The notes below the pieces were generated by a model. The model saw only the letters and a program-made list of their open reading frames with translations. It did no database searches and was not told the origin of the DNA. The position numbers and the translations under genes were made by a program. Below are positions 1,801 through 19,175 of a stretch of 20,833 nucleotides of DNA, piece by piece (the first letter of the stretch is position 1; the number at the start of each line of letters is the position of its first letter). Source of the DNA: Betaproteobacteria bacterium (GTDB lineage Bacteria; Pseudomonadota; Gammaproteobacteria; Burkholderiales; SG8-41); assembly GCA_029863175.1 (NCBI GenBank), contig JAOTVX010000051.1, positions 1-20,833 on the forward strand, read 5' to 3'.

Positions 1801-1970
1801 GTGAATCGTGAATGGAGATTTGCTCTTCTTGGCGGTCTTGGCGTCTTGGCGGTTCAATATCGCAATTCTCCGCGCCTCCGCGGTTCAAAGATTGTTCCTG
1901 CTTCTCTTGGCGCCGTGGCGGTTTAGTTTTGGAATTTATCGGCGTTAATCGGCGTCCATCGGCGGCTAAT
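1801..1970. repeat. Composite periodic intergenic array (7-, 8- and 10-bp units)
   Basis: Several short periodic blocks follow one another. Positions 1801-1814 hold GTGAATC and GTGAATG (7 bp). Positions 1828-1857 hold three CTTGGCG(G/T)-type units ending in GGTTCAA. Positions 1868-1890 hold CTCCGCGC and CTCCGCGG followed by TTCAAAG. Positions 1906-1925 hold CTTGGCGC and CGTGGCGG followed by TTTA. Positions 1938-1967 hold three 10-bp units ATCGGCGTTA, ATCGGCGTCC and ATCGGCGGCT. Blocks of different composition each keep their own period. The array lies just downstream of the OsmC-family gene and upstream of the binding-protein promoter. No matching inverted arm was found nearby. Confidence 0.75.
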
Positions 1971-1975
1971 CTTCT

Positions 1976-2425
1976 CTATTCTGTGACGACACGAACTTCG
2001 GTCGTCACAGAATTTGCGATAAAGCACTCGCGATGCGCCTTGTCGTGGAGCCACTCCATGTCGGCCGAAGTGGGCGTCTTGGTTCCGCTGAAAACTATTT
2101 TCGGATGCAGCTCGACGCGGGTCACGGCAAGCTTGCCCTGGGGGTTCTTCTCGAGCGTTCCCACCGCCCGGTCTTCGTAGCTGTCGACGACGAACCCTTT
2201 GTTGGCAGCCAGTGCGAGGAAGGTCAGCATGTGGCAGCTCGAGAGTGCAGCGACAAGCGCACCCTCGGGGTCTACGCGCTCCGGATTACCCAGGTAGGCG
2301 GGCGTGGCTGATGCGGGCACCTCGACACCGTTATCGAAGCGCCAGACGTGGTCACGGCTGTAAGTCTTGATACCGAAGTTCTTGCCGTCGCGGGCCCAGT
2401 GGATGGTGGCTTTGTGTTCTGACAT
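1976..2425 (-). CDS. OsmC-family peroxide-reducing protein
   Basis: The 149-residue product starting MSEHKATIHWARDG matches the OsmC/Ohr fold family, small cytoplasmic thiol peroxidases that reduce organic hydroperoxides. The two family cysteines are present: Cys64 in LSSCHMLTFLAL and Cys134 in HRECFIANS. An acidic residue at Glu54 and an arginine at Arg29 are plausible active-site partners. The PEGALVAALSSCHM segment is characteristic of the OsmC branch rather than Ohr. The frame stays open for 40 more codons upstream, but those codons are the 8-bp repeat array and give a low-complexity peptide, so the ATG at 2425 is preferred. GGA lies about 6 nt upstream of it. The gene appears to be monocistronic between two repeat arrays. 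Confidence 0.88.
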   Translation of the reverse strand: MSEHKATIHWARDGKNFGIKTYSRDHVWRFDNGVEVPASATPAYLGNPERVDPEGALVAALSSCHMLTFLALAANKGFVVDSYEDRAVGTLEKNPQGKLAVTRVELHPKIVFSGTKTPTSADMEWLHDKAHRECFIANSVTTEVRVVTE

Positions 2426-2430
2426 AAATT

Positions 2431-2568
2431 CCGTGAGATCGGGAGGTCGAGAGGTCGGGAGGTCGAAAAGCCGTGAAATCGTGAGATCGGGCGATCGAAA
2501 GTCTTTGAGATCGTCAGATCGGGAGGTCGTGAGGGGAATTTCCATCTCCCGCTCTCACGCCCTCACGT
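2431..2568. repeat. Octanucleotide array with opposing arm
   Basis: Twelve consecutive 8-bp units run from 2435 to 2530, with a consensus near GAGATCGG (GAGATCGG, GAGGTCGA, GAGGTCGG and so on); units such as AAAGCCGT and AAGTCTTT have drifted but keep the register. An opposing arm of about three 8-bp units (CTCTCACG, CCCTCACG) lies at 2542-2567. Its complement matches the start of the array (CGTGAGAGCGGGAG against CGTGAGATCGGGAG), so the two ends could pair. The array fills the gap between the OsmC-family start and the upstream gamma-glutamyltransferase stop. Confidence 0.85.
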
Positions 2569-2569
2569 A

Positions 2570-4159
2570 TCAATAACCCACGGCTTGGCCATCCGTGCGA
2601 CGCTCCGATGCCGCCAGATAACCATCCTCCATGCGGTAGATGAGTTGCGCGCGCCCGAAGTCGGTGCTCCAGCGGTCGGCCTCGGCGAGGCGATGGCCCC
2701 GGCGGCGCAGGTCTTCAAGCACCGCGGCGGAAAATCCGGGCTCGATATTGACGCCAAGACCCTCGTCGACGCGCCAGCGCGGCGCGTCGGAGGCCGCCTG
2801 CGGGTTCTGCTGGTAGTCCGCGAACCGGACCATGACCTGGGAGTGGCCCTGCGCCTGCATCGAGCCGCCCATCACCCCGAAGCTCATTACGGGCTTGCCG
2901 TTGTGGGTGACGAAGGCGGGAATGATGGTGTGGAAAGGCCGCTTGCGCGGCGCCACGACGTTGACATGGTCCGGCCGCAGGACGAAGCCGTAGCCCCGAT
3001 TTTGCATGCTGACGCCCGATGTCACGATGCCGGAGCCGAAGCCCATGAAGTTCGACTGGATGTAGGAGACCATCATGCCCGACGCATCGGCGGCCGTCAG
3101 ATACACGGTGCCGCCGCGGCCGGGGACGCCGTGTTGTGGCGCCTGAGCTTTCTTCATGTCAATCAATCGTGCACGCGTGCGCAGGTATTCCTTGTCAAGG
3201 AGATCGGCGCTTTTCAACCGCATCGTCGCCGGGTCCGAGACATGCTCGTGCAGATCGGCGAAGGCGAGTTTCATCGCCTCGATCTGCAAGTGCAGGCTAT
3301 CCGCAGAATCCGCCGGGAGCGAGGCCAGGTCAAAGCCCTCGAGCATGCCGAGGCTCATCAGCGCGCCGATACCTTGTGTCGCGGGCGGGATTTCGTGCAG
3401 CGTGTAGCCGCGATACGGATAGGCGATCGGTTCCACCCAGTCGATGGTGTGTGCCGCGAGGTCCGCGACTGTCATCGCACCGCCATGCTCCTTCGAATGC
3501 GCAGCGATCTGCTCAGCGAGATCACCCTTGTAGAAAGCTTCGCCTTTCGTCTCGGCGATGCGCTTCAACGTTTTCGCGTGGGCAGGCGCAACGAATTTCT
3601 CACCGGCCTCGGGCGCACGCCCGCGCGGCATGAAGTGTTCCGCGAACCCAGGCACATCGCGCAGATCGGGCACCTGTTTCGCCCACAGCCGCGCGATGGT
3701 CGGCGACACCAGGAAGCCGCCGGCCGCGTAGTCGATCGCCGGCTCGAACAAATTGGTGAACGGCAGCTTCCCGAAACGCTCCGAGAGCGCGACCCAGGCC
3801 GACACGGCACCCGGAACCGTGACTGCGTCCCAGCCGCGCGAGGGCATCGCCGTTCTCCCCTTGAAACGGTCGAGGTGCCAGGCAGCGGGGGAGCGCCCGT
3901 TGGCGTTCAGGCCGTGAAGCCGTTTTCCGTCCCACAGGATGCAGAAGGTGTCGCTGCCGATGCCGTTACTCGTGGGCTCGAGCACTGTCAGCGCGATCGC
4001 GGTGGCAAGTGCGGCGTCGACCGCGTTGCCGCCCTTCAACATCATGCGCAGCCCTGCTTGCGCGGCGAGCGGTTGCGAGGTTGCGACCGCGTTGCGTGCC
4101 AACACCGGCATGCGTTGCGACGGGTACGGGAAATCCCAGCCAAGATCTCCATTCACCAT
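2570..4159 (-). CDS. Gamma-glutamyltransferase family protein (YwrD-like)
   Basis: From the ATG at 4159 this encodes 529 residues of the N-terminal-nucleophile gamma-glutamyltransferase family, whose precursor self-cleaves into two chains. The start (FPYPSQRMPVLARN, then VATSQPLAAQAG and GGNAVDAALATA) resembles the YwrD-type branch. The predicted nucleophile and cleavage site is Thr351 in GRGGTVYLTAAD. The substrate-pocket segment YIQSNFMGFGSGIV (366-379) and a GGSMQAQGH loop (431-439) follow. No signal peptide is seen, so it is probably cytoplasmic. The frame is open to 4360, but that extension would overlap the divergent gene and lacks family similarity. No clear Shine-Dalgarno precedes 4159. 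The substrate, glutathione or another gamma-glutamyl or acyl compound, is not determined. Confidence 0.9.
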   Translation of the reverse strand: MVNGDLGWDFPYPSQRMPVLARNAVATSQPLAAQAGLRMMLKGGNAVDAALATAIALTVLEPTSNGIGSDTFCILWDGKRLHGLNANGRSPAAWHLDRFKGRTAMPSRGWDAVTVPGAVSAWVALSERFGKLPFTNLFEPAIDYAAGGFLVSPTIARLWAKQVPDLRDVPGFAEHFMPRGRAPEAGEKFVAPAHAKTLKRIAETKGEAFYKGDLAEQIAAHSKEHGGAMTVADLAAHTIDWVEPIAYPYRGYTLHEIPPATQGIGALMSLGMLEGFDLASLPADSADSLHLQIEAMKLAFADLHEHVSDPATMRLKSADLLDKEYLRTRARLIDMKKAQAPQHGVPGRGGTVYLTAADASGMMVSYIQSNFMGFGSGIVTSGVSMQNRGYGFVLRPDHVNVVAPRKRPFHTIIPAFVTHNGKPVMSFGVMGGSMQAQGHSQVMVRFADYQQNPQAASDAPRWRVDEGLGVNIEPGFSAAVLEDLRRRGHRLAEADRWSTDFGRAQLIYRMEDGYLAASERRTDGQAVGY

Positions 4160-4328
4160 TGAGCGGAATAATACACCATTCGCCACGGCCCAGACCACGC
4201 TGCACTGCGTGCGCTCAAGGTCACATGCGGCATCGAATGAGCCGCCCGGGCGGAAGGGCGAGTAGAATTCAAAAACCAAGGACGTCGCGGCGCTTACAAG
4301 TAACCGCGCCGCTTTCAGGAGAGGGCGC

Positions 4329-6050: not shown

Positions 6051-6125
6051 ACGTCGGTAGAGAGGCCTGAGCAACGAAGGTCACAGCGGGTTCGAAAGAG
6101 GCAAAGAAGAAAAATCGATAGGTAA

Positions 6126-6404
6126 CTCACGATTCACTACGCAGACCACCGGCATCTTTGGCGGCTTTCGGGCGGATTCGGCTATCGCTTGCACAAAGAG
6201 CTGTTGCTGGCCGCCGAGGCGGGGATCCGCACCAACCCTGCCAGGGACGACCCATTCCTGCCGGGGCGCAATGGCCACTTCGCGACGCTCGGAGCGATTT
6301 ACTCCCCTACCGAGAAGATTGATATCGCTATCGGGTTCCGAAAGAGCACCAACAGCGGCGAGGCCGACAGAGCGTTTCCCTTCGGCGTAACGTTCCGCTG
6401 GTAG
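6126..6404 (+). pseudogene. 3' remnant of an outer-membrane beta-barrel gene
   Basis: An open frame without a credible start runs from just after a stop at 6123 to TAG at 6402-6404. The last 70 or so residues alternate polar and hydrophobic residues (FATLGAIYSPTEKIDIAIGF) and end in FPFGVTFRW. A terminal aromatic residue after a beta strand is the usual recognition signal of outer-membrane barrels. Only about two to three strands remain and no upstream part of the gene is visible, so it appears truncated. The family is not recognised. A short TTL-start ORF at 6189 could be translated, but nothing supports that. Confidence 0.5.
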
Positions 6405-6424
6405 GGGCGCGGAGCGGGTGTGCT

Positions 6425-7294: not shown

Positions 7295-7310
7295 AAATCA
7301 AGATCATCAG

Positions 7311-7467
7311 CCGCAGATACCCGCAGATGTGCTTACCTAGGATCTCGAACCCCGAACACTGAACACTGAACATGTATCTTAGCCGCCGATGAACGCCGAT
7401 ACACGCCGATCAGATTCGTGAATCGTAAATCGTGAAACGTGTTTAGCCGCAAATAGACACAGATCAG
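7311..7467. repeat. Mosaic of periodic intergenic blocks (7- and 10-bp units)
   Basis: Five short blocks lie one after another: CCGCAGATAC and CCGCAGATGT (7311-7330, 10 bp); GAACCCC, GAACACT, GAACACT and GAACATG (7347-7374, 7 bp); three 10-bp units ending in GCCGAT (7381-7410); GTGAATC, GTAAATC and GTGAAAC (7418-7438, 7 bp); and a degenerate pair containing CGCAAATAGA and CACAGATCAG (7448-7467). The composition changes between blocks, but each keeps a strict period. The array lies in the gap between the hydrolase and the Rid-family gene, both on the plus strand. Confidence 0.75.
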
Positions 7468-7488
7468 AAATCGGACATCCCGAACCGC

Positions 7489-7608
7489 GTGAGTGGTGAG
7501 TGGACAAGACCCGAGCGCTCGGTCACTCTTTACTCATCACTCATCACTCATCACTCATCACTCATCACTCATCACTCATTACCCATCACCCGTCACCCAT
7601 CACCTATC
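7489..7608 (+). repeat. Heptanucleotide array with opposing arm in the Rid-family leader
   Basis: Six perfect ACTCATC heptamers (7532-7573) are followed by five drifting ones (ACTCATT, ACCCATC, ACCCGTC, ACCCATC, ACCTATC; 7574-7608). A short opposing arm, GTGAGTG twice (7489-7502), can pair with the heptamers: 5'-GAGTGGTGAGTG-3' against CACTCATCACTC gives 12 consecutive pairs, one of them G-U in RNA. The array ends 12 nt before the ribosome-binding site of the next gene. Perfect short tandem repeats of this kind are prone to slippage. Confidence 0.88.
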
Positions 7609-7631
7609 ACGCTTTGCAAAGGAGGAGAGTC

Positions 7632-8033
7632 ATGGCACAAAAGAAATTTATCAATCCCGAAGGCATGGCCCGGCCAGGCGCGTACACGCCCGTCGTCACC
7701 GCGCAGGGTGGGAGGACCCTCTACATTTCGGGGCAGGTGTCGCTGAACGAGAAGGGCGAGCTGATCGGGCGAGGGGACCTGATGGCGCAGGCGGAGCAGG
7801 TGTGGCGCAATGTCGGCCTCGCGCTCAAGGGGGCGGGTGCGACCTTCAACGACCTCGTAAAGATCAACGTGTATGTGGTGAACTACAAGCCCGAGTACCG
7901 CGATTATCTGCACCAGGTGCGGTTGCGCTACGTCTCGAAGGAAAACCCGCCGGCAAGCACGCTGGTGGGTGTGCAGGGGTTGGCGCGCGACGGCTTCCTG
8001 ATAGAAATCGAGGCCATCGCGGTGGCGGACTGA
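7632..8033 (+). CDS. RidA/YjgF-family protein lacking the catalytic arginine
   Basis: This 133-residue protein has the Rid-family (YjgF/YER057c/UK114) fold signature, including ISGQVSLNEKGELIG (32-46), a VKINVYVVN strand and the C-terminal IEIEAIAVAD. GGAGGAGAG at 7621-7629 is an excellent ribosome-binding site for the ATG at 7632. In RidA enzymes that hydrolyse enamines and imines, the segment PARSCV supplies the essential arginine. Here the aligned segment is PASTLV, with Ser109 in its place. Rid subfamilies without this arginine are known and generally lack imine deaminase activity, so RidA function should not be assumed. A heptanucleotide array fills its upstream region and a broken copy of its 3' end follows. 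Confidence 0.92.
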   Translation: MAQKKFINPEGMARPGAYTPVVTAQGGRTLYISGQVSLNEKGELIGRGDLMAQAEQVWRNVGLALKGAGATFNDLVKINVYVVNYKPEYRDYLHQVRLRYVSKENPPASTLVGVQGLARDGFLIEIEAIAVAD

Positions 8034-8126
8034 GTTGATTAAGAAGGGACATCGCACAGCGCCAATGACGCGCTCCGGGGTCGCATCCCCGAATACGGGG
8101 CCCCTGCTTCGCCCTTCGCGTGCCCG

Positions 8127-8174
8127 CGCGACGGCTTCCTGATCGAAATTGAGGCGATCGCAGTGGCCGACTAG
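8127..8174 (+). pseudogene. Remnant of a second Rid-family gene (last 15 codons)
   Basis: 48 nt repeat the 3' end of the neighbouring Rid-family gene (7986-8033). Both copies encode RDGFLIEIEAIAVAD and a stop. The five differences before the stop codon are all silent (ATA/ATC, ATC/ATT, GCC/GCG, GCG/GCA, GCG/GCC), and the stop codons differ (TGA against TAG). Upstream of 8127 the similarity ends at once and no reading frame of the family continues. The pattern fits the tail of a once functional paralogue whose body was deleted. Confidence 0.8.
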
Positions 8175-8194
8175 AGGCTATCCCAAAAAAACAT

Positions 8195-8287
8195 AGCCAC
8201 GGAACCACACGGAAAGTTTTGTTTCACTAAGCATACGTCTCCGTTCAGGTCTTCGTCCGTGTAATTCCGTGTGATTCCGTGGTTAAT
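8195..8287. repeat. Inverted periodic element with CACGGAA core
   Basis: The left arm AGCCACGGAACCACACGGAA (8195-8214) faces the right arm at 8255-8287, whose complement reads ACCACGGAATCACACGGAAT and continues with a third unit. Within each arm CACGGAA recurs every 10 bp. The two arms can form an imperfect stem of about 20 bp around a 40-nt loop. It lies between two convergent genes, the Rid-family gene and the response regulator. Confidence 0.82.
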
Positions 8288-8304
8288 GATTTATCGGCAA
8301 TTCG

Positions 8305-8339
8305 AATCACGACTCACGACTCGCGAATCACCATTCACC
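8305..8339. repeat. Five-unit heptanucleotide array
   Basis: Five heptamers in strict register: AATCACG, ACTCACG, ACTCGCG, AATCACC, ATTCACC. Their common part is (A)NTCAC, the complement of the GTGA core seen in the arrays at 7418, 7489, 10384 and 11348. The array lies 36 bp past the stop codon of the response regulator, on its downstream side. Confidence 0.75.
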
Positions 8340-8375
8340 GGTCTTGGGGCGGAAAAAGCGTTTCTGGAGCCGCTT

Positions 8376-9152: not shown

Positions 9153-9232
9153 GGGTTACGCTGTCACCATCACCAGCAAGAATTATCGCATGATCGCGCG
9201 CTCCGCGCCTGGCGGTAATCCACGAATCAGGG

Positions 9233-10333: not shown

Positions 10334-10383
10334 AACTCAGGGAGCGAGAATGAAAGCGCATCAGTTTACAATGGATGGAACCG

Positions 10384-10493
10384 GTGAATGGTGAATAGTG
10401 AGTAGACAAACGGGATTGGATTGGCGGCGATCACGGTTTAATCCATTCACCACTCACCACTCACCACTCATCAATCACCAATCACCAGTCACG
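10384..10493. repeat. Inverted heptanucleotide array between divergent genes
   Basis: The left arm has three heptamers, GTGAATG, GTGAATA and GTGAGTA (10384-10404). After a 40-nt loop the right arm has seven heptamers in strict register: ATTCACC, ACTCACC, ACTCACC, ACTCATC, AATCACC, AATCACC, AGTCACG (10445-10493). The arms are complementary in kind (GTGA against TCAC) and can pair over about 20 bp with mismatches. The array ends 12 nt before the DUF3025 start and fills most of the shared divergent region, so any promoters must overlap it. Confidence 0.88.
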
Positions 10494-10505
10494 CCTTTCT
10501 AATGT

Positions 10506-11330: not shown

Positions 11331-11420
11331 CCACTGGCCAGGAAATAGTGATGGAAACTGGTGATGAGAAAAGGTGATGATTAATGGTGATATACGATTT
11401 TACGGGCGTTCTTCATCACC

Positions 11421-11429
11421 ATTTCGCAT
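11421..11429 (+). repeat. Left target-site duplication
   Basis: ATTTCGCAT directly abuts the left terminal inverted repeat and is identical to the copy at 11603-11611. The identity can be extended to 11 bp (ATTTCGCATCA) if the element is taken to start 2 bp later, but 9 bp gives symmetrical ends. Confidence 0.85.
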
Positions 11430-11602
11430 CAGTGCTGTCCGGTTAAACCGAAAAACGTCAATTTAGCGTTCGTAAGTGATTGAAACTTCAATCGGTGACT
11501 CTTGATCCGCAATCGAAGTCGTGGACATCCGTAAATGGCGATATCTGTACGTAACGTCAATCACTTACGAACGCCTAAATCGTGTTTAACCGGACACTAC
11601 TG
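11430..11602. mobile_element. 173-bp non-coding inverted-repeat element (MITE-like)
   Basis: The ends are terminal inverted repeats: CAGTGCTGTCCGGTTAAAC on the left (11430-11448) and CAGTAGTGTCCGGTTAAAC read inward from the right end (11602 to 11584), 17 of 19 identical. A further perfect 16-bp inner inverted repeat lies at 11467-11482 and 11558-11573, so each arm is about 45-53 bp around a 75-bp centre. It encodes no protein. The perfect 9-bp flanking duplication and the restored 13-bp phase of the surrounding array after its removal show that it inserted by transposition. No transposase is present in the window, so it must have been moved in trans. A 9-bp duplication would suit IS4-like enzymes, but the family is not established. 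Confidence 0.88.
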
Positions 11603-11611
11603 ATTTCGCAT
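11603..11611 (+). repeat. Right target-site duplication
   Basis: ATTTCGCAT directly follows the right end of the element and matches 11421-11429 perfectly. The following CAC continues the 13-bp array in register. Confidence 0.85.
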
Positions 11612-11645
11612 CACTACTTACCATCACCAATATTCATCACTTCTC

Positions 11646-12695
11646 TTAGGTGGAGAAAAGCGTGATTCGATTCTTGCCGCCGTTCTTGCTCGCGTACGTC
11701 GCGTGGTCGGCCCGTTCCTGCACGGTTTCGAGGTCGTGCCCCTGGTTGGGGTAGCCAGCGATGCCGATACTGACGGTTGCTGTCACCTTCTTGTCGCGGG
11801 TGGTGAGGGGGCTTGATTCGATTGACTTGCGGATGCGCTCGGCTACGCCGACCGCGCCGTTGCTCGACGTGTCAGGCAGCAGCACGACGAATTCATCGCC
11901 GCCATAGCGCGCGACGACGTCGGTCTGGCGCAGCTGGCTCTGAATACACTGCACGGTGAGCTTGAGCAGGCGATCACCCGCCTCGTGGCCGAGCGTATCG
12001 TTCACGGTCTTTAGGTGATCGGAATCGACTATCAGCACGCTGAACGGCCTGGCGTAACGCTCAGCCTGACGGAAAACGCGCTCCGCTACCGCGCCGAAGG
12101 CGCGCATGTTGAGCACACCGGTCAGTTCATCTGTCTCCGACAGGAGTTTCATATGGCCGAAGGCGCGTCGGATGTCGGCGGAGAGCATTGTGGTTATGTA
12201 GGCGACGAGCAGCATGGGGGCAATCTGCGCGACCAGGGTAGTGCCGAACGGCAGCGACAGGGTGTTGCGTTGGGGATAGCCGAGCCAGACGTAGCAGGCC
12301 GCGATCAGGCCCAGCTCCAGCAGCGTGATAGCCTTGCCCAGCGTGAGCGCGCTGACGATGACCACCAAGAGGTAGAGATCGTTGAGGGGGCTGGCCGCAC
12401 CTCCGGTATAGAACAGCACCCAGGTAATGAAGACGATCATGACCAGGGTCTCGGCGACGAGCTTCCAGTGGCTTTCTTTGCTGTAGAAGTTCGCGTAGTG
12501 GAAAGACAGAACGAACGCAGCAAAGAAAAACATCGCCATGGCCAGCGACGCTGCGGTGACCTCGTCGGGCGACAGCACCAGTTGGTAGAGCAGGACCAGG
12601 ATCAGCAGGAGCCATTCGATCTCCGCCACCGTGCGCGCGAAGCCACGCAGCTCCTCTGCTGTGAGAACCGGTTGGAACACCTCATTGGTTTTCAT
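11646..12695 (-). CDS. Membrane-bound diguanylate cyclase (GGDEF)
   Basis: From the ATG at 12695 the product has 349 residues. The N-terminal half carries five or six hydrophobic helices (about 27-43, 50-66, 83-97, 105-120, 124-140, 155-172), probably a membrane sensor. The C-terminal GGDEF domain (about 185-345) has the signature RYGGDEFVVLLP (263-274) with the catalytic loop intact, and the allosteric inhibitory site RQTD (256-259) five residues before it. It should make cyclic di-GMP from GTP and be feedback-inhibited by the product. The frame continues to a GTG at 12728, but the ATG gives a more natural start; neither has a clear ribosome-binding site. It is convergent with the DUF3025 gene. 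Confidence 0.9.
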   Translation of the reverse strand: MKTNEVFQPVLTAEELRGFARTVAEIEWLLLILVLLYQLVLSPDEVTAASLAMAMFFFAAFVLSFHYANFYSKESHWKLVAETLVMIVFITWVLFYTGGAASPLNDLYLLVVIVSALTLGKAITLLELGLIAACYVWLGYPQRNTLSLPFGTTLVAQIAPMLLVAYITTMLSADIRRAFGHMKLLSETDELTGVLNMRAFGAVAERVFRQAERYARPFSVLIVDSDHLKTVNDTLGHEAGDRLLKLTVQCIQSQLRQTDVVARYGGDEFVVLLPDTSSNGAVGVAERIRKSIESSPLTTRDKKVTATVSIGIAGYPNQGHDLETVQERADHATYASKNGGKNRITLFST

Positions 12696-12728
12696 TGCGG
12701 TGCCGATCAGCGGTGAGGTAACGAGCAC

Positions 12729-13484
12729 GTCAGAATCGCGCCGTTAGGTGCGTAACGTCGGTTGCGGTCTGTGTCGTCGCTGACCCGCCGCATCACCACG
12801 GCTACGAGGGTCACAAGCGCGTGGCCGATCCAGCGGGCGCCCATAGCGTCGGAGCACGACCCTTTTCCTTGTCCGATTTCCCCTGAATGCCGCAGTCGGG
12901 AGTTGCGGCTATGTTATTCGAAAAAACCAGCGAGGTGGGAGGATCGGCGGTCACACCGCGTCGAGTTACGGCTGCGGCGACGCAGATCCCGAAGCAGGTT
13001 GCCGAAAAAGATGACGCAATTCACGATGTGAAGAATGATCGTGTTTCGAATACGCCGGGTGCAAAGCGCTTGCCCGCCGAGCGCAGGTGGCGCTTCAGCA
13101 CGAAGTCAAACAGGAGAGGATTGTGCTCGCGGATCGCAGACAGCAAACGCGGTCTGCTCTGGCAGCGGCTTTCCGTCCGTGCTGCGGCGAGTAGCGCAAG
13201 ACAAGCGCCACGGCGCCCAGCACGGTCGCGCCACCGGCCGCGAGGATCAACTCGCGGCGTCGTATGCGGATCTGCAGGGGCCCGCTTATGATAGGCGAGG
13301 AGATTCACGATGATGGCCGCCATACGTTCTGGCTGCGGGTCCGTCCCGGCGGCAGCGCCGCCTGATGGGGGTTTTTGGAATAATATCTTTGTTATTCAAT
13401 AGGATGAAAACGAGCGCGGTCCATTGAACTCGGCCGTCGCGCCCCCATCTAAACACCGTTCCATTTCATAAAGACTGTGCAGGC
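12729..13484. other. Gene-poor region, possibly holding a decayed gene
   Basis: No reading frame here looks like a conserved protein. On the minus strand, about 13170-13275, one frame reads RRRELILAAGGATVLGAVAL, resembling a twin-arginine or hydrophobic export signal. It has no in-frame ATG and the neighbouring frames take over within a few dozen codons, as in a frameshifted remnant. A small GC-rich hairpin with stem GGCGGC/GCCGCC (13348-13362) followed by GGGGGTTTTT precedes htpX and could be a weak terminator. Unlike most other gaps, this one contains no periodic array. Confidence 0.35.
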
Positions 13485-14375
13485 ATGAAAAGAATCTTTC
13501 TGTTCCTGGGAACCAACATTGCCGTGTTGTTGGTGCTGTCCATCACGATGCGGCTGCTGGGAATAGAGGGCATCCTCGACCGGGAGGGAGTGGATCTCAA
13601 CCTGAACGCGCTGCTGGTGATGGCTGCGGTGATCGGCTTCGGCGGCTCGTTCATTTCGCTCCTGATCTCGAAGTGGTCGGCGAAGAGGATGACCGGGGCG
13701 CACGTGATCGAGGCGCCCTCGAACGCCGCGGAGCGCTGGCTCTTCGACACGGTCAAGCGCCACGCCAGCCAGGCGGGCATCGGCATGCCCGAGGTGGCGA
13801 TCTACGAGGCGCCCGAGATCAACGCCTTCGCAACGGGTTGGAACCGCAACAGCTCCCTGGTCGCAGTGAGCACGGGATTGCTGCAGAACATGACGCAGGA
13901 CGAGGCCGAAGCCGTCATCGGCCACGAGGTGAGCCACGTCGCGAACGGTGACATGGTGACGCTGGCATTGATCCAGGGCGTCGTCAACACCTTCGTCATC
14001 TTCCTGTCGCGCATCATCGGCCATCTGGTCGACCGGGTCGTGTTCAAGGTCGAGCGCGGGCATGGCCCCGCGTTCTGGATTACCGCGATCCTCGCGCAGT
14101 TCATCCTGGGTATTCTTGCCTCGACGATCGTGATGTGGTTCTCCCGCCAGCGTGAGTTTCGCGCGGATGCGGGCGGTGCGACGCTCGCCGGCCGTGAGAA
14201 GATGATCGCCGCGCTCGAGCGCCTGAAGCTGAACCACGGGCGGCCGGCGCAGCTACCTGATCAAATTGCCGCCTTTGGCGTCTCGGGCGGTGTCGCGAAG
14301 GGCATCAAGCATCTCTTCATGTCCCATCCGCCGCTTGACGAGCGCATCGCGGCATTAAGAGCCCAGGCCCGATAG
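13485..14375 (+). CDS. htpX: Membrane zinc metalloprotease HtpX
   Basis: The 296-residue protein has the expected size and layout of HtpX, an inner-membrane M48 protease that degrades misfolded membrane proteins. It has two N-terminal helices (about 4-22 and 41-62), the zinc motif HEVSH at 147-151 (ligands His147 and His151, catalytic Glu148), two further hydrophobic stretches (about 160-182 and 196-220), and the third zinc ligand Glu224 in [12 protein letters not shown]. The end [12 protein letters not shown] is typical of the family. The ATG at 13485 has only a weak AG-rich region upstream. A bidirectional terminator follows. Stress induction is common for the family but no specific operator is visible here. 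Confidence 0.95.
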
Positions 14376-14388
14376 CCCCGGCGCCATG

Positions 14389-14413
14389 AAAAAGCCCGGT
14401 CGCGCGGGCTTTT
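14389..14413. terminator. Bidirectional intrinsic terminator
   Basis: A 9-bp stem AAAAGCCCG / CGGGCTTTT (14390-14398 and 14405-14413) surrounds a 6-nt loop. The plus strand ends in TTTTCTTGT and the minus strand in TTTTTC, so it can stop transcription of htpX and of the convergent 14495-17830 gene. Confidence 0.85.
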
Positions 14414-14494
14414 CTTGTCCCTGCATTCGGCGCAAGCCTCACGGATCTCATCCGCGTGTATCTGCCGCTAATGTTTCTTATTTTCTTGCGCGCT

Positions 14495-17400
14495 CTAGGG
14501 TAGCAGCACCGGTGTCGTGAGATTACCGCGCACGGAGAGATTGCGGCGTCCGACGACAATCGATCCGGTACCTACCTCGGCTCTGATGCGTCCGGACAAA
14601 TTGCCGCCCGGGTTGATCGTGATCTCGCCGTTTGCGCGCATGGGACCGGAGCCCAGCCGCAAGTGCTGGTAGGCGTAGCGGCGCCCCGACACCTGCAGCG
14701 TGCCGGAGAGATCGTTGAACAGGGTCTTGCCTCCCCGGATGCCATCGGCGGCCGGGGACTGGATAGCACGCACGATGTCCACGTTGTTCAGCATGCCTTT
14801 CTCGACGCTGAAGGTTACCCGCACGCGTGGATCGTCGAACAGGCCCTCAATGGTGTCGCTCCGCAGCGAGTACGTCCCGTTTAGGTTTAGTGTGCCGCCC
14901 GCCGTAAAGGCGTTGGTAAAGACCGCGAGCAATTCTTTTACTTCGCCATTTGACAGGTTAAAGTTGCCGGCGAGCTGGAAGCCGCGGTCCCAAGATGCGG
15001 TAGCTGAGCCTCTCAAGGTGCCGCGTCCCAATTTCGCTTCGATCTTGCTGACGCGGGCCTGCCGACCCTCGATTACCGCTGTCGCTGTCAGGTCGTCGAG
15101 AGGCAGCGCCGGTCCGAACGGGGGCTCCCAACTGCCAGCCCTGAAATCGGCTTCCAGCGTCTGGCCCTTGGACACCAACTCCATGCTCAACCTGCCGTCG
15201 GACAGCGACCCGCGCTGCAGTGTACCGTCCGCTCCCACGACCACATCGCCATTGAAACTGGGAATATCGATTCCAAGGAACGCGATATTAACGGCGCGGA
15301 ATTTCAGACGGCGCACGTTGAAAGCCTGCCCTTCGACCGCGGGCTTGAGCCAGCCTGGCACCAAGGCGAAGGCCTTTTGGTCAGCCGACACCCCGATCAC
15401 CTCGACTTCGTCGAGCGTGGTGGGCCCACCGAGCAGTTGCGTTGGCAAGGCGCTAACCTCGATGGTGCTGATCTTGATTTCTTCCAGCCTGCCGATGGCG
15501 ACCCGTTCCAGCGTCAGGCGCGGTGAAGGGATGAACGTGTAGCGCACATTGCCGACCTTGACCGGCGCCTGCAGGCGCTGCGAAAGGGCCTGTTCGGCGG
15601 CTGGAACATAGATGGAGAGCGGCAGGACGTGCACTGCCCCAATGATGGCGACAATCAGGGCGACAAGCCCGATGCCCCCCATTTTGAGCCAGTTGATCTT
15701 TGCCCCGGGCGCGCGCACGTAGGTGGTTGCAGACTCGCGTTCCGCGTCTACCCGCTTCCTGCGCACTTTGGCTGAAGTCTTGGCGCGCTCGGCCGCTTGC
15801 TGGCGGTAACGTGCGTCCGCTTCCATCTCCGCGACCTCACGTGCCTTGATCTCGGCCGTGACCCGCGCCGAAATATCCTCTTCTGCCATCTCGCGCAGTT
15901 CGCGTTCGTGCATGACGCGCGAGACGGCTTCTGCCTTGGCGCGGTCCTCGGCATCGGCGCGGGCCCGGCGCTCCATCTCTGCTTTCGCCTCCGCTTCAGC
16001 CTTGGCCTGTGCTGCCGCGTCGGCAATCGCCCGCGCCTCGGCCATCGCCTGCTCCGCCCTGCGCGCGACGGCTTCGGCTTCCATGCGCTGCTGGCGACCA
16101 CGGTTCGATTCGTCGGTCTCGCGCTTCTTGCGGTCGGCGTCGTCGCGCGCTTTGTGCGCAACTTCCGCCTGTCGTAACGCTTCCTCCAGCGCATTCTTTT
16201 CGGCGGCAACCTTGGCGGCGAGCTCGGCTTGTGCATTGCGTTCGGCTTCGTCACGTGCCCTGCGCTCCGCTGCGGCATTGGCCTCGGCTTCCTCGCGCGC
16301 CTGGCGTTCCTTTTCAATTATCCCTTGGACTTCGGCGCGGGCGCGTACTTCTGCTTCTTCCCTGGCTTTGGCGAGCGCCGCTTCGCGCGTCTGGCGCTCG
16401 GCCTCGGCTTTGGCTTCCGCTTCTTCGCGCGCGCGGCGTTCGGCTGCGAGCTTGGTTTCCGCCTCTTCACGCCCGCGCCGTTCCGTTTCGGATCTCGACA
16501 AGGCTTCCGCACGGGCTCTCTGTGCCTGCTCCTGCAGATCCTTCAGCTGAGCTTTCGCGCGCCGGTCGGCTTCCTCGCGTTCCTGGTGTTCGCGTTCCTC
16601 GCGCGCCTTGTACTCTTCCTCTTCGCGCTGACGCGCCTCGGCTTCCTCCCGCGCCCGACGCTCGGCCTCTACACGCGCCTCGCCTTCCGTCCGTGCCTTG
16701 GCTTTTGCCTCCTCGAGCGCTTTCAAGGCCGTATCCATGCGCGCCCGGGCTTCGGCGTCCCCCTCCACGGATTGCATTGCCACCCGCATCTCGGCGTCGG
16801 CCTTCGCGCGTGCAGCGGCTTCCGCCATCGCGCGCGCTTCCGCGACCGCGTCTTCAGCATTCTTTGCGCGTGCCTCGGCTTCTTCACGCGCCTTGCGCTC
16901 GCGCTCCTCCCGGGCCCTGATTTCGCCTTCGACCTTTATGCGCCGCTCGGCTTCCTGTTTGGCGCGCGCCTCCGCCTTGGCGAGCGCCTCCTGGAGTGCC
17001 TTCAGCTGAGCCTCGACCGCCGTCTTCGCCTTCGTTTCGGCGTCAGCCACCGCCTGCGCTTCCTCCTCGGCCTTGGCCCCCGCCTCAGCTTCTTCCCTGG
17101 CCTTGGCCTCAGACAAGGCTTTTTGCTCGGCCTCGGCTTTCGCTCGCGCCTCGGATTCGGCGCGCGCTGTGGCCTCCGCGTCGGCGCGCGCCTGCTCTTC
17201 CATCGCGGCTTTTACCCTGGCCTCGGCTTCCGTGCGGGCCTGCGCATCCGCCGCCGCTTTTGCCTCGGATTCCGCCCTGGCCTTCGCTTCAGTCGCTGCT
17301 TTCGCCGCTGCTTGCGCCTTCAGCTTCGCCTCGGTTTCGGCCTTGGCCTTGGCTTCTGCCATCGCCCGGGCACGCGCTTCCGCTTCCTGCCGGACCTTCG

Positions 17401-17830
17401 CTTCCGCGGCGGCCCGCGCGGCCGCCTGGGCCCTGGCTTTCGCCTGCGCTTCCGTCTTCGATCGCTGCTCGGCTTCGGCATTGAGCTTTACCATCGCAGT
17501 CGGCGAGGTAAAGTCCAGGTCCTCGACCTCGTGCGTCGCGGCAGGCGGGGAAAGGGCGCCGCTGGCAACGGCCATTCTGGGTTGGGTCCGTTCATCTCGA
17601 GTGGGAGCCGGGGAGGAAAAGACCCTGATGTAGCCGTCGGCGACGAGCTTGTCGAGCGCTTCCTCGAGCTTTTTCGCCGGAATTCCCGACTTGCTGACCA
17701 GATTGGAAACGGTCGACTTACCGTCAATGGCGAGAAACACGACGCCAAGTTCGCGCGCCAGCTTGATCGTCTTGTTCTTGACTTCCAGGACGCCCTTGGA
17801 CGTCTTGGTGAATACGGTTTGTGGATGCAT
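14495..17830 (-). CDS. Winged-helix module, giant coiled coil, membrane span and AsmA-like domain
   Basis: This is a 1111-residue protein of unusual build. Residues 1-73 form a winged-helix-like module homologous to the N-terminus of the 8376-9152 response regulator (VFTKTSKGVLEV, then FLAIDGKSTVSNLV, then LVADGYIRVF). A linker with EDLDF (103-107) leads into about 575 residues (115-690) made almost entirely of Ala, Glu, Arg and Lys in heptad-like patterns, a long cytoplasmic coiled coil. A basic stretch precedes a single membrane span (about 714-736, KMGGIGLVALIVAIIGAVHV). Residues 740-1111 resemble AsmA-type proteins (RLTLERVAIGRLEEIKISTIEV early on; FNDLSGTLQVSGRRYAYQHL near the end) and would lie in the periplasm. 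AsmA-like proteins help move phospholipids to the outer membrane and normally carry their anchor at the N-terminus. No Shine-Dalgarno sequence is obvious. The function is inferred only. Confidence 0.85.
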   Translation of the reverse strand: MHPQTVFTKTSKGVLEVKNKTIKLARELGVVFLAIDGKSTVSNLVSKSGIPAKKLEEALDKLVADGYIRVFSSPAPTRDERTQPRMAVASGALSPPAATHEVEDLDFTSPTAMVKLNAEAEQRSKTEAQAKARAQAAARAAAEAKVRQEAEARARAMAEAKAKAETEAKLKAQAAAKAATEAKARAESEAKAAADAQARTEAEARVKAAMEEQARADAEATARAESEARAKAEAEQKALSEAKAREEAEAGAKAEEEAQAVADAETKAKTAVEAQLKALQEALAKAEARAKQEAERRIKVEGEIRAREERERKAREEAEARAKNAEDAVAEARAMAEAAARAKADAEMRVAMQSVEGDAEARARMDTALKALEEAKAKARTEGEARVEAERRAREEAEARQREEEEYKAREEREHQEREEADRRAKAQLKDLQEQAQRARAEALSRSETERRGREEAETKLAAERRAREEAEAKAEAERQTREAALAKAREEAEVRARAEVQGIIEKERQAREEAEANAAAERRARDEAERNAQAELAAKVAAEKNALEEALRQAEVAHKARDDADRKKRETDESNRGRQQRMEAEAVARRAEQAMAEARAIADAAAQAKAEAEAKAEMERRARADAEDRAKAEAVSRVMHERELREMAEEDISARVTAEIKAREVAEMEADARYRQQAAERAKTSAKVRRKRVDAERESATTYVRAPGAKINWLKMGGIGLVALIVAIIGAVHVLPLSIYVPAAEQALSQRLQAPVKVGNVRYTFIPSPRLTLERVAIGRLEEIKISTIEVSALPTQLLGGPTTLDEVEVIGVSADQKAFALVPGWLKPAVEGQAFNVRRLKFRAVNIAFLGIDIPSFNGDVVVGADGTLQRGSLSDGRLSMELVSKGQTLEADFRAGSWEPPFGPALPLDDLTATAVIEGRQARVSKIEAKLGRGTLRGSATASWDRGFQLAGNFNLSNGEVKELLAVFTNAFTAGGTLNLNGTYSLRSDTIEGLFDDPRVRVTFSVEKGMLNNVDIVRAIQSPAADGIRGGKTLFNDLSGTLQVSGRRYAYQHLRLGSGPMRANGEITINPGGNLSGRIRAEVGTGSIVVGRRNLSVRGNLTTPVLLP

Positions 17831-17980
17831 AGTTCGCGATTGTTTCGCTTACTCTAAGTCCGCGCAATGTCAGGGAGCACAATTACACATCGGGACACCT
17901 ATTGTGCAAACTGCAGCCCATCGGATCAACGGAGCAACGCCCCGCGCGATCTCATTCGAATCCTGCGTGATATCTGTCAC

Positions 17981-18002
17981 TGCTATAATCGCTTCATTAT
18001 AG
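17981..18002 (+). promoter_or_regulatory. Extended -10 promoter within a palindrome
   Basis: TGCTATAAT (17981-17989) is a perfect extended -10 element on the plus strand, about 70 bp before the HD-domain gene; no -35 box is visible, as is common for this type. The -10 lies in an inverted repeat, CTATAAT and ATTATAG, with 6 nt between (17983-18002), so TATAAT is also present on the minus strand towards the divergent AsmA-like gene. The rest of 17831-18059 holds no gene. Confidence 0.55.
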
Positions 18003-18059
18003 TTTAATAGTGCGCTAAAGCCCTATCGTACATGGTTTTTTGGATCCCGAGGGTCGTCG

Positions 18060-19019
18060 ATGCGTGACCGGCGAAACGAATACGACGTTACCAACATCGT
18101 CGACACGACCCGTCCTGCGGACGTCTCCGACACGGTCCGTAATATCTACCAGGACCTCTACCAGAAGGACGCACCCAAGAATCTCGGCCAGGCCTTCGCC
18201 GACCTGGGCCTGCTCTATGAGGGCAAGTATCCCGGGTTTCATGAGTGTGAGACGGATTACCACGATGTCCAGCACGTTCTGGATGTGACGCTGGCCATGG
18301 CCCGACTGCTGAACGGCTGCGTGCGCAGCACCGGCACGGATACCGTCGGCGAACGGCTGTTTCGGTTCGGCATTATCACCGCGCTCTATCACGATTGCGG
18401 CTACATTCGGCATCGCAAGGATACGAAGCACTCGAACGGCGCTGAATACACCACGATCCACGTTTCACGCGGTGCGAGTTTCCTGGGGGAATACATGCCC
18501 AGGATCGGCATGGCAGACCTTGCGCAGGCTGCGGCGCGCACCCTCCATTTCACCGGCTACGAGGTTCCGGTGGACAAGATCCGGGTGCCGGCCCCCGAGT
18601 TCCGTCTGATTGGCAACTTGTTGGGCAGCGCCGACATCCTGGCCCAGATGGCCGATCGGTGCTATCTGGAGAAGTGCTACGACCGGCTATACCCCGAGTT
18701 CGTGCTGGGCGGTATTGCGCGCAAGCGGCGCGCGGACGGCTCCGAGCAGGTCATGTTCGCTTCTGCTGCCGATCTGATCTGCAAAACGCCGCACTTTTAC
18801 CAGGGCGCCAACAAGCGCCTGCGGCAGGACCTCGGCGGCTGCTACAACTACATTGAGAAGCACTTCGGCGGGCAGAATCTCTACTTCGACGAGCTCGAGA
18901 AGAACATCGACCACGCGCGCGCGATCGCGGTAGAAGGCGACATTTCAATGCTGCGGCGGCGGCCGCCCGCGCAGGGCGAGGACGAAGAGAACACCGATCC
19001 GCAGCTCCGGCTCATCTAA
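18060..19019 (+). CDS. HD-domain metal-dependent phosphohydrolase
   Basis: This 319-residue soluble protein has an HD-type metal centre: DYHDVQHVLDVT (66-77, His68 and His72), ALYHDCGYIRH (108-118, His111-Asp112), and GSADILAQMADR (189-200, Asp192). The YHxxxHxxDV spacing is reminiscent of class I cyclic-nucleotide phosphodiesterases, so a cyclic or linear nucleotide substrate is plausible but unproven. It is not an HD-GYP protein, because no GYP motif is present. GAGGGT at 18048-18053 serves as ribosome-binding site for the ATG at 18060. It is divergent from the AsmA-like gene. The charged C-terminal tail (about 302-319) looks unstructured. Confidence 0.85.
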   Translation: MRDRRNEYDVTNIVDTTRPADVSDTVRNIYQDLYQKDAPKNLGQAFADLGLLYEGKYPGFHECETDYHDVQHVLDVTLAMARLLNGCVRSTGTDTVGERLFRFGIITALYHDCGYIRHRKDTKHSNGAEYTTIHVSRGASFLGEYMPRIGMADLAQAAARTLHFTGYEVPVDKIRVPAPEFRLIGNLLGSADILAQMADRCYLEKCYDRLYPEFVLGGIARKRRADGSEQVMFASAADLICKTPHFYQGANKRLRQDLGGCYNYIEKHFGGQNLYFDELEKNIDHARAIAVEGDISMLRRRPPAQGEDEENTDPQLRLI

Positions 19020-19077
19020 CTAGAAGGGCGTGACCGGTGATGGGTCACTAGACGCGATCGCGAAAAAACCACACTGC

Positions 19078-19175
19078 AGCCGCCGATGCACGCCAATAGA
19101 CGCGGATAAGAAAGAAGTAAATTTATTTGTGTCGGTTTTCTGTCCGCGTTCATTTGCGTTTATCTGCGGCTAATG
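19078..19175. repeat. Inverted periodic element, 10-bp units
   Basis: The left arm AGC + CGCCGATGCA, CGCCAATAGA, CGCGGATAAG (19078-19110) faces the right arm TGTCCGCGTT, CATTTGCGTT, TATCTGCGGC + TAATG (19141-19175). The complement of the right arm reads AGCCGCAGATAAACGCAAAT and onwards, so the arms can form an imperfect stem of about 33 bp around a 30-nt AT-rich loop. It lies between the convergent HD-domain and quinone-oxidoreductase genes, ending 15 bp from the latter's stop, and could act as a terminator. Confidence 0.87.

What the first reader, a model, noticed from the sequence alone, without database searches (positions are those of the whole stretch)
1801..19175. Family of phase-constant periodic arrays in most gaps between genes
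Seen: seven gaps (1801-1970, 2431-2568, 7311-7608, 8195-8339, 10384-10493, 11348-11640, 19078-19175) hold short cores repeated at a fixed period of 7, 8, 10 or 13 bp. Several keep the register although single units have drifted, and most show two arms facing each other. A GTGA/TCAC core recurs in the 7-, 8- and 13-bp types. Gaps without such arrays (9153-9232, 12729-13484, 17831-18059) are either short or of another kind. Known: heptanucleotide short tandem repeats (STRR) occur in cyanobacteria, but the mixture of periods and the inverted layout does not fit that description directly. Inference: one process generates or maintains these hairpin-forming arrays, which may serve as terminators or RNA processing sites or be a self-spreading sequence class.
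Basis: partly seen in the sequence, partly recalled or inferred. Interest (0 to 1): 0.8.

Follow-up and report, generated by a model that had tools for sequence, protein, structure and literature searches.

The report
Spreading palindromic repeats between bacterial genes
Many gaps between genes in this group of bacteria hold palindromes whose two arms are short words repeated at a fixed spacing; at least some of them are copies of small DNA elements that have spread through the genome, and what moves them is unknown.

Summary
In detail: seven gaps carry phase-constant arrays (six at the floor p 0.005 against shuffles; the seventh mainly by its inverted arms). No genome is held for the window; the nearest relative found is the betaproteobacterial MAG SG8_41 (G001). 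There 131 of 478 gaps carry such arrays (shuffles 1.3, coding pieces 6 of 478); in G017 58 of 197; five smaller samples range from 0 of 9 to 3 of 8. Two arrays in one gap share period and complementary word beyond permutation; facing runs point inwards 36:1, 17:0 and 10:0. In orthologous gaps the array-bearing version is longer in 13 of 15 gene pairs (median +98 bp), often with another word per genome. The window's 8171-8295 array is one copy of a dispersed element with 42 sites in G001; its arms are conserved, its loop drifts, and no compensatory change joins the arms. G017 has a second, longer element. Best reading: foldback-type miniature mobile elements whose arms are tandem binding words for an unidentified protein. 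Terminators are poorly supported. Paired tandem repeats of this layout were described in Geobacter metallireducens in 2009.

The parts
1801..1975 (-). Series of arms read on the minus strand: a period-10 CGCCGAT arm (1935-1964), a period-8/9 CGCCAAGA arm (1827-1853) and degenerate ones between
   Evidence: TRF rows 1827-1853, 1938-1964; lag 10, p 0.005; sequence read
2432..2534 (+). Left arm, period 8 (TRF also 16 and 32): GTGAGATC / GGGAGGTC words
   Evidence: score 25.0, p 0.005
2536..2567 (-). Right arm (CTCACGCC) facing the previous one; 2472-2503 pairs with 2536-2567
   Evidence: inverted score 16.6, shuffle maximum 9.8
7347..7441 (+). Three consecutive arms: period-7 GAACACT, period-10 TTAGCCGCCGATGAACGCCGATACACGCCGAT (7379-7410), period-7 TCGTGAA (7416-7441); same order in the orthologous gap of L001
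   Evidence: orthologue alignment
7523..7610 (-). Right arm, period 7, about 12 units of TCACTCA, ending about 20 bp before the start codon of the L-PSP gene
   Evidence: score 61.4
8171..8295 (+). Copy of the dispersed CACGGAA element: left outer end 8171-8196, left arm 8197-8214 (2 units), loop 8215-8256, right arm 8257-8282 (3 units), right outer end from 8283 (outer borders approximate)
8303..8339 (-). Period-7 array GAATCAC beside the element
   Evidence: score 16.8, p 0.005
10383..10422 (+). Left arm, period 7 GTGAATG
   Evidence: orthologous arm in L001
10440..10492 (-). Right arm, period 7 CCACTCA; 21 bp (three units) longer than in L001 at the same place
11343..11391 (+). Period-13 array GGTGATGA+5
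   Evidence: lag 13, p 0.005
11597..11640 (-). Degenerate ATCACC arm facing 11343-11391
   Evidence: sequence read, by eye
19078..19113 (+). Left arm, period 10 CGCCGAT/CGCCAAT/CGCGGAT
   Evidence: 19078-19113 with 19136-19171, inverted score 16.2
19136..19171 (-). Right arm, period 10 ATCTGCG; with its loop about 75% alike to two G001 places

Best explanation
The arrays are the arms of foldback-type miniature mobile elements that have accumulated between genes. An element has two inward-facing arms, each a short run (2-4 units in the copies read) of a heptamer word (in the period-8 to -10 types C-purine-C-N-purine-A-K plus 1-3 loose bases), a loop, and partly complementary outer ends. SHOWN: dispersal of two such elements (CACGGAA type in the window and G001; CGCCGAT type in G017 and G023), inward polarity within word classes, array-bearing orthologous gaps about 100 bp longer, unit-number differences in register, conserved arms beside a drifting loop, no compensatory change between the arms. 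INFERRED: the words are tandem binding sites of a mobilising protein supplied in trans, so copies with intact arms are the ones that spread; units are gained and lost by slippage; elements persist where they do least harm (after stop codons, away from divergent promoters). NOT SHOWN: the mobilising protein, target duplications, and whether the period-7 and -13 arrays belong to such elements or grow in place.
For: Window 8185-8295 matches six places in 743 kb of G001 at 70-79% over 85-115 bp, loop included. A sequence model of the seven copies gives 55 rows in G001, 42 distinct sites after merging both-strand rows (my count; some are partial or weak, and only 67 of 633 first-look candidates were scored), and a match in 12 of 60 genomes, G001 included. 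12 of 12 copies placed against called genes are intergenic, 30 bp of overlap allowed. Over 27 copies each arm differs from consensus in 40 and 39 of 486 cells; mean consensus frequency 0.88 in the right arm, 0.57-0.69 in the loop, falling to 0.39 outside; matched arm-to-arm changes at chance (4 against 2.8, p 0.28). Left arms have 2 (17 copies) or 3 (10 copies) units. In G017/G023 ten loci share arms and a loop of about 110 bp, subsets share outer ends, several have a further hairpin inside an arm. Polarity 36:1, 10:0, 17:0; single runs follow it too. Orthologous gaps longer with array in 13 of 15 pairs, permutation p 0.0005; DUF3025-GGDEF gap 88-315 bp in the window, G001, G003 and G011, -20 to 45 bp in nine others.
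Against: After masking arrays, 7 of 185 G001 array gaps share 40 bp or more with another gap, no more than gaps without arrays (11 of 293): most G001 arrays, the period-7 ones above all, show no shared body. No target duplication was seen by eye in the copies. No autonomous copy was found; the end profile is weak (6 hits, E 0.018-0.61, all beside CACGGAA words), so its silence says little. The 27 copies were found by similarity that includes the arms, so arm conservation is partly ascertained. In G011 (pair 8,9) period-7 arms lie on both sides of an ordinary terminator hairpin, which one insertion explains poorly. Core variants of the two arms of period-10 hairpins do not agree beyond chance (6 of 17 against 5.0). 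In one search some rows flagged as arrays are not of these word classes (G002 in pair 15,16, a 2,626-bp gap, inflates that difference; also G016 in 9,10 and G021 in 7,8), two pairs go the other way, and gaps under 40 bp could not score.
Confidence: 0.5

Rival explanations
1. In-place growth: replication slippage multiplies a 7-14 bp word at gene ends and intrastrand template switching (quasipalindrome correction; recalled) copies one arm into the other. No mobile unit is needed; the shared vocabulary reflects a few words prone to it.
For: Loops and flanks of most G001 arrays are not shared. Words differ between genomes at the same gap. Unit number differs between orthologues in register (21 bp in the right arm). 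Two arrays of one gap share period and word beyond permutation. In G011 arms lie around an existing terminator. Heptamers are the most abundant class among 5-11 nt repeats in most genomes of Mrazek's survey, as told in PMC4679880 (section 3, read).
Against: Strict inward polarity within each word class, the same words in many places and several genomes, conserved loops in the CACGGAA and G017 families, no arm-to-arm covariation in the family tested.
Confidence: 0.21
2. Host-selected binding sites: the tandem words bind a nucleoid or regulatory protein (IHF/HU was proposed in G. metallireducens) and are kept for that function.
For: Arms are conserved word by word without compensatory change; period 9-10 is near one helical turn; published interpretation of paired repeats in PMC2700814.
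Against: Patchy even among relatives (25 of 60 genomes for one word); words differ at orthologous gaps; rarer in divergent gaps (9 of 82) than in convergent (28 of 67) and co-directional ones (94 of 329) in G001.
Confidence: 0.12
3. Transcription terminators or RNA-processing hairpins at gene ends.
For: In co-directional gaps hairpins start a median of 14 (G001) and 12 nt (G017) after the stop codon and lie closer to it than to the next start in 88 of 126 decided cases; frequent in convergent gaps; T is raised after the six convergent array hairpins of G017 (0.44, gap average 0.30). In the CACGGAA family mispairs are skewed, 30 A-C against 13 G-U on the element strand, which on the other strand is a G-U excess.
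Against: G-U equals A-C in co-directional gaps (260, 274; p 0.57); 5 or more T in the 8 nt after the hairpin in 11% of 54 (G001) and 12% of 32 (G017), though hairpins without arrays are little better in G001 (15% of 26), so the test is weak; median loop 40-41 nt; array gaps hold terminator-like sites about as often as others (9 of 154 against 16 of 209; 5 of 61 against 13 of 91).
Confidence: 0.1
4. Elements mobilised by REP-associated tyrosine transposases (a REP/BIME variant).
For: Intergenic, palindromic, paired, downstream of genes, as REPs (PMC3733652 abstract); weak positive correlation of word count with Y1_Tnp count over 60 genomes (rho 0.33, p 0.01). Of 12 Y1_Tnp loci read, 4 have some array in a flank; in one (L433, G003) GTCGTCA runs lie on both sides, nearly all in one orientation, the right one beyond an intervening stretch of about 470 bp.
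Against: Two carriers with 53 and 29 copies (G006, G014) have no Y1_Tnp match, 22 of 35 genomes with no copy have one (MAGs may be incomplete). No Y1 locus is enclosed by CRCNRAK runs: within 1.2 kb 3 of 12 have a run on one side, 0 on both; some carry other repeats that look like their own.
Confidence: 0.07

Closest known systems
'Predicted global regulator binding sites' classes 1-3 and other multicopy intergenic sequences of Geobacteraceae (Aklujkar et al. 2009, PMC2700814, sections 14 and 22 read, other passages seen; G. bemidjiensis PMC2996986 and P. carbinolicus PMC3543383, passages seen)
   Same: Tandem repeats of 7-9 nt in pairs on opposite strands at variable distance; 16-48 sequences per class; class 2 consensus TCTCCGTS[Y] is the complement of a CACGGAG-type word, which occurs here too (2 of 150 runs); G. 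bemidjiensis has multicopy sequences in 12% of gaps, and several in 31% of those.
   Different: Described one genome at a time and read as IHF/HU sites; in what I saw there are no orthologous gaps, polarity, loop-versus-arm conservation or element borders. Here periods 7-10 and 13, mostly other words, betaproteobacterial MAGs.
Foldback and Galileo transposons of Drosophila (PMC3573991, passages seen)
   Same: Long terminal inverted repeats with internal tandem repeats of varying number; such repeats have been proposed to hold secondary transposase-binding sites.
   Different: Eukaryotic, far longer, transposase known for Galileo; no homology claimed.
Bacterial MITEs (recalled)
   Same: Short, dispersed, inverted ends.
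   Different: Arms are short-period word arrays; no parent element and no target duplication found.
REP/BIME palindromes (PMC3733652, abstract and section 16 read)
   Same: Extragenic, paired, downstream of genes.
   Different: REPs are 20-40 bp, carry a GTAG or CGTC tag, and GTAG types often go with RAYT genes.
Heptanucleotide repeats: TAACTGA repeats (PMC4679880, abstract and introduction read), STRR and long simple sequence repeats (recalled or told there)
   Same: Period 7, intergenic, patchy over phyla.
   Different: TAACTGA runs are direct repeats near start codons, one indirect repeat beside 169 sets; here arms are inverted and periods vary.

Membership tests
MITE | Many dispersed copies | tested here: met
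   42 distinct sites of the CACGGAA element in G001; 12 of 12 placed copies intergenic
MITE | Terminal inverted repeats | tested here: met
   Complementary arms; outer ends partly complementary by eye and weakly conserved
MITE | Target-site duplication | tested here: inconclusive
   None evident by eye in the copies printed; no close strain to show an empty site
MITE | Autonomous relative with a transposase between the same ends | tested here: inconclusive
   A weak end profile found only CACGGAA copies in about 20% of G001 and the other samples held
Foldback-type element | Inverted repeats built of internal tandem repeats | tested here: met
Foldback-type element | Homologous transposase | not tested
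   No enzyme identified; likeness is of layout only
REP/BIME | 20-40 bp palindrome | tested here: not met
   Elements of roughly 110-250 bp
REP/BIME | GTAG or CGTC tag at one end | tested here: inconclusive
   No such tag seen by eye in the consensus ends printed; not scanned systematically
REP/BIME | Flanks a RAYT gene | tested here: inconclusive
   CRCNRAK runs on both sides in 0 of 12 Y1_Tnp loci, on one side in 3; GTCGTCA runs on both sides of one
Geobacter paired tandem repeats | Tandem 7-9 nt repeats in pairs on opposite strands, variable distance | tested here: met
Geobacter paired tandem repeats | Common descent with, or IHF/HU binding as proposed for, the G. metallireducens classes | not testable with these tools
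   Supplementary alignments not available (0 look-ups); no binding data
Intrinsic terminator | Short-loop GC stem followed by a T-tract | tested here: not met
   Median loop 40-41 nt; 5 or more T of 8 in 11-12% of co-directional array hairpins
Structured RNA | Pairing kept by compensatory or G-U changes | tested here: not met
   G-U 260, A-C 274; 4 matched changes against 2.8 by chance; a consensus fold of seven copies has 7 of 27 pairs with a double change but a positive covariation term (+1.47); Rfam gave one sub-threshold match, at the inserted unit
STRR / heptanucleotide SSR | Plain head-to-tail heptamers | tested here: not met
   Lag 7 is commonest (88 of 131, G001), but arms pair and other periods occur

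The most novel reading that the evidence does not exclude
A broad, unnamed class of bacterial foldback elements with 'iteron' arms: each family has its own heptamer word read by its own mobilising protein at a set spacing (period 7 + 0 to 3), and words are swapped or re-acquired at the same gene ends, so that a quarter or more of all gaps in some genomes are built of them. The enzyme would be of an unrecognised kind or act in trans from elsewhere.
Probability: 0.3. Interest if true: 0.82.

Novelty: new variant of a known kind. Interest (0 to 1): 0.6.

Why it matters
In two genomes sampled, over a quarter of the gaps of 60 bp or more carry these arrays, and orthologous gaps differ by about 100 bp through them: they are a large source of intergenic DNA in this group. 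In the library searched I found no name or mechanism for them as a class (searches). The family in the window gives a concrete handle, 42 sites with defined arms, to find the protein that reads the words.

Tried and rejected
Terminators: rejected as the main reading. RAYT mobilisation: rejected as the main reading. On re-reading for this report I found that my first wording (no Y1 locus flanked by arms) was too strong: L433 has GTCGTCA runs on both sides. I checked it and moved 0.02 of confidence to that rival from the in-place and binding-site rivals. Insertion into the loop of an existing hairpin, giving nested palindromes: nested pairs no commoner than random placement (0.37 against 0.35; at the strictest threshold 17 nested, 17 side by side, 0 crossing where 10% crossing was expected); terminator in the loop of array hairpins 0 of 67 and 0 of 31. 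Arm-to-arm copying: no support in the CACGGAA family nor from core variants of 17 period-10 hairpins (a three-base spacer test gave 8 against 4.7, p 0.04). An outer end TTARC before the first unit is frequent for periods 8-10 only. A plasmid search with a 47-base piece found nothing. Inverted segments alone are not special: array-poor relatives have them too (9 of 46 gaps in G016, 8 of 49 in G061, shuffles 0). IMG/VR contigs hold the words: 52 stretches with the period-10 pattern, at least 120 with CACAGAG at period 9 (scan stopped at its limit) against 43 for that pattern read backwards; the contigs were not opened, so prophage, phage or host flank is unknown. (relatives of the window's GGDEF protein in viral contigs) bore on nothing.
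Full report
WHAT WAS CHECKED. The window (20,833 bp, no whole genome held) carries ordinary chromosomal genes, among them a solute-binding protein, OsmC, gamma-glutamyltranspeptidase, an L-PSP protein, a response regulator, an FAD oxidase, DUF3025, GGDEF and an M48 protease (ten proteins scanned). The nearest relative found is the MAG Betaproteobacteria bacterium SG8_41 (L001, genome G001; 73% identity over the DUF3025 protein), with largely conserved gene order. Genes were called with a simple codon-usage script of my own; periodicity was scored as the best ungapped self-alignment at lags 5-20 against dinucleotide shuffles.

OBSERVATION. The phenomenon is genome-wide. In a first sample of G001 77 of 250 gaps scored 12 or more, against 4 of 250 shuffled once each and 2 of 250 coding pieces. 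In the enlarged sample (743 kb) 131 of 478 gaps did, against 1.3 expected and 6 of 478 coding pieces, with lags 7 (88), 10 (17), 13 (11), 14 (9), 8 (2) and four others; in G017 (396 kb) 58 of 197 against 0.3 and 1 of 197, lags 7 (32), 9 (8), 10 (6), 14 (6), 8 (2) and others once each. Smaller samples gave 7 of 50 (G016), 1 of 51 (G061), 1 of 28 (G052), 3 of 8 (G004) and 0 of 9 (G020). Inverted arms scoring 13 or more: 84 of 455 gaps in G001 (1 in shuffles, 2 in coding) and 48 of 191 in G017 (0 and 2), but also 9 of 46 in G016 and 8 of 49 in G061. Array gaps by type in G001: convergent 28 of 67, co-directional 94 of 329, divergent 9 of 82; G017: 8 of 25, 47 of 139, 3 of 33. G001 stretches were taken from contigs known through hits of one word, a mild bias.

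DISTRIBUTION. The pattern CGCCGATNNACGCCGAT occurs 89 times in G001 and in 25 of 60 genomes (G001 and 59 relatives), never in its reversed control. A longer, looser pattern occurs in 7 of 398 genomes drawn from the phylum, G001 included. The trait is patchy.

GRAMMAR. Arrays sharing a gap share the period more than by permutation (63 against 46.1 in G001, 24 against 10.2 in G017; above all 1,000 permutations) and their words are complementary (mean mismatch 2.19 against 3.63 and 2.00 against 3.46; permutation p 0.0005 each). In period-10 arrays the core columns C-G-C-N-G-A-T match between neighbouring units at 0.90-0.99, except the fourth at 0.74, and the three spacer columns at 0.54-0.78; in 12 period-9 arrays the contrast is weaker (core 0.74-1.00, spacers 0.65-0.71). 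Words of periods 8-10 fit C-R-C-N-R-A-K and are often preceded by TTARC; period-7 words do not share that end. Facing pairs point inwards 36:1 for that class, 10:0 for GTTC, 17:0 for GTRA. Single runs do too: GTRA 26:3 forward in the left half of a gap, 4:29 in the right; GTTC 10:1 and 4:11; CRCNRAK 14:10 and 3:26. Relative to transcription in co-directional gaps, CRCNRAK runs lie 71:48 on the sense strand and GTRA runs 27:50; this is unexplained. Word classes were defined after seeing the data; what is informative is the consistency within each.

ORTHOLOGOUS GAPS. Against L001, the gap before L-PSP keeps the order GAAC array, CGCCGAT array, TCGTGAA array although its middle hardly aligns; the oxidase-DUF3025 hairpin is kept with three more units in the window; the gaps after L-PSP and after DUF3025 hold different words (by eye). 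Across 17 genomes, gaps with an array are longer than orthologues without in 13 of 15 gene pairs having both states, median excess 98 bp, stratified permutation p 0.0005. Some of these differences are small (186 against 174.5 bp in pair 5,6), and one is inflated by a 2,626-bp gap of G002 flagged for a simple repeat. The clearest case is the convergent DUF3025-GGDEF pair: 315, 158, 111 and 88 bp in the window, G001, G003 and G011, each with another word (G001 is weak, p 0.07, and was counted as array-free), against -20 to 45 bp in nine others.

ELEMENTS. Window 8185-8295 matches six places in the G001 sample at 70-79% over 85-115 bp, loop included. A sequence-only model built from the seven copies gave 55 rows in G001, 42 distinct sites when both-strand rows are merged, some partial or weak; 12 of 60 genomes have a match, G017 none. 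With flanks of 20 more copies, outer ends recur beyond the arms, roughly TAGAAGCYATCTCAAAAACAACACAGCC on the left and a partly complementary sequence on the right, though a profile of the ends is weak. Over 27 copies each arm differs from consensus in 40 and 39 of 486 cells, with no excess of matched changes (4 against 2.8, p 0.28); mean consensus frequency is 0.88 in the right arm, 0.69 in the adjoining loop, 0.57 further in (ungapped, so an underestimate), and 0.73, 0.55 and 0.39 going outwards. Left arms have two units in 17 copies and three in 10. The 12 copies that could be placed are intergenic.

In G017, 20 loci picked (16 of G017, two each of G013 and G023) were compared. Ten of them, one from G023 (L062), share arms and a loop of about 110 bp; subsets share outer ends, and several have a further hairpin within an arm. 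A search with one copy gave 40 matching pieces in G017 and pieces in 15 of 40 genomes, many of them arm or end pieces only, with at most 19 candidates per genome scored. The outer ends AGAGCNCGTTTCAAAAA (G017) and TAGAAGCYATCTCAAAAAC (G001) look alike by eye; this was not tested.

LIMITS. For most G001 arrays no such body can be seen: after masking arrays 7 of 185 array gaps share 40 bp or more with another gap, against 11 of 293 gaps without arrays (G017: 15 of 75 and 19 of 122). Either those elements are old and only the arms have kept their sequence, or the period-7 and -13 arrays grow in place. This is why the best explanation stands at 0.5 only.

MECHANISM. Arms conserved word by word, spacers and loop free, both arms inward, no compensatory change: this is what one expects of binding sites at the two ends of an element, and less of a hairpin kept for its pairing. 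In transposons, tandem repeats in the terminal inverted repeats have been proposed to hold secondary transposase-binding sites (PMC3573991, passages seen). The mobilising protein is not identified. Y1 transposases fit poorly but are not excluded.

PRIOR WORK. Paired tandem repeats of 7, 8 and 8-9 nt on opposite strands were described in G. metallireducens and read as IHF/HU sites (PMC2700814, sections 14 and 22). G. bemidjiensis has multicopy sequences in 12% of its gaps (PMC2996986, passages). Heptamer repeats are discussed in PMC4679880 (abstract, introduction). A search for six repeat strings found one paper, seen in the listing only and not opened (PMC3090145). So the layout is known; the occurrence across betaproteobacterial genomes, the polarity, the orthologous-gap evidence and the element family in the window are what is added here.

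Noticed in passing
11436-11596: A 161-bp unit with ends TGTCCGGTTAAAC / GTTTAACCGGACA lies inside the period-13 palindrome; it looks like a separate small insertion. No copy passed the cut in the G001 and G017 samples.
   Followed up: partly
8128-8175: A second copy of about the last 48 bases of the L-PSP gene (7985-8033) lies just downstream of it: a partial duplication, seen by eye.
   Followed up: no
12729-13484: The gap looks like a decayed gene: L001 has an open frame called at 12213-13451 and a further small one at 13586-14047 at this place, similar by eye.
   Followed up: no
L425, L432, L434 (Y1_Tnp loci in G001 and G003): Y1 transposase genes lie beside repeats of another kind, such as AAAATGGGGCCGGGTCCACTTTTCC or CAAGAACTGACCCCG, which look like their own end repeats.
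   Followed up: no
L433 (G003), about 1121-1327 and 2728-2796: Runs of GTCAGTCGTCA on both sides of a Y1_Tnp gene, all in one orientation save the two leftmost; the same heptamer forms the array in the L001 gap after L-PSP.
   Followed up: partly
L045, L046, L049, L053, L054 (G017): A hairpin of about 28 bp, TACCCGTCAAGCGGGTATTAAAGTG, sits inside an arm in several elements and also recurs elsewhere in relatives.
   Followed up: partly
IMG/VR contigs listed: Period-9 and period-10 arms occur in contigs filed as viral, up to six times in one stretch; whether in phage DNA or host flanks was not checked.
   Followed up: no
14495-17830: Long open frame (1111 codons) with tandem repeats of 30, 42 and 48 bp, multiples of three.
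   Followed up: no
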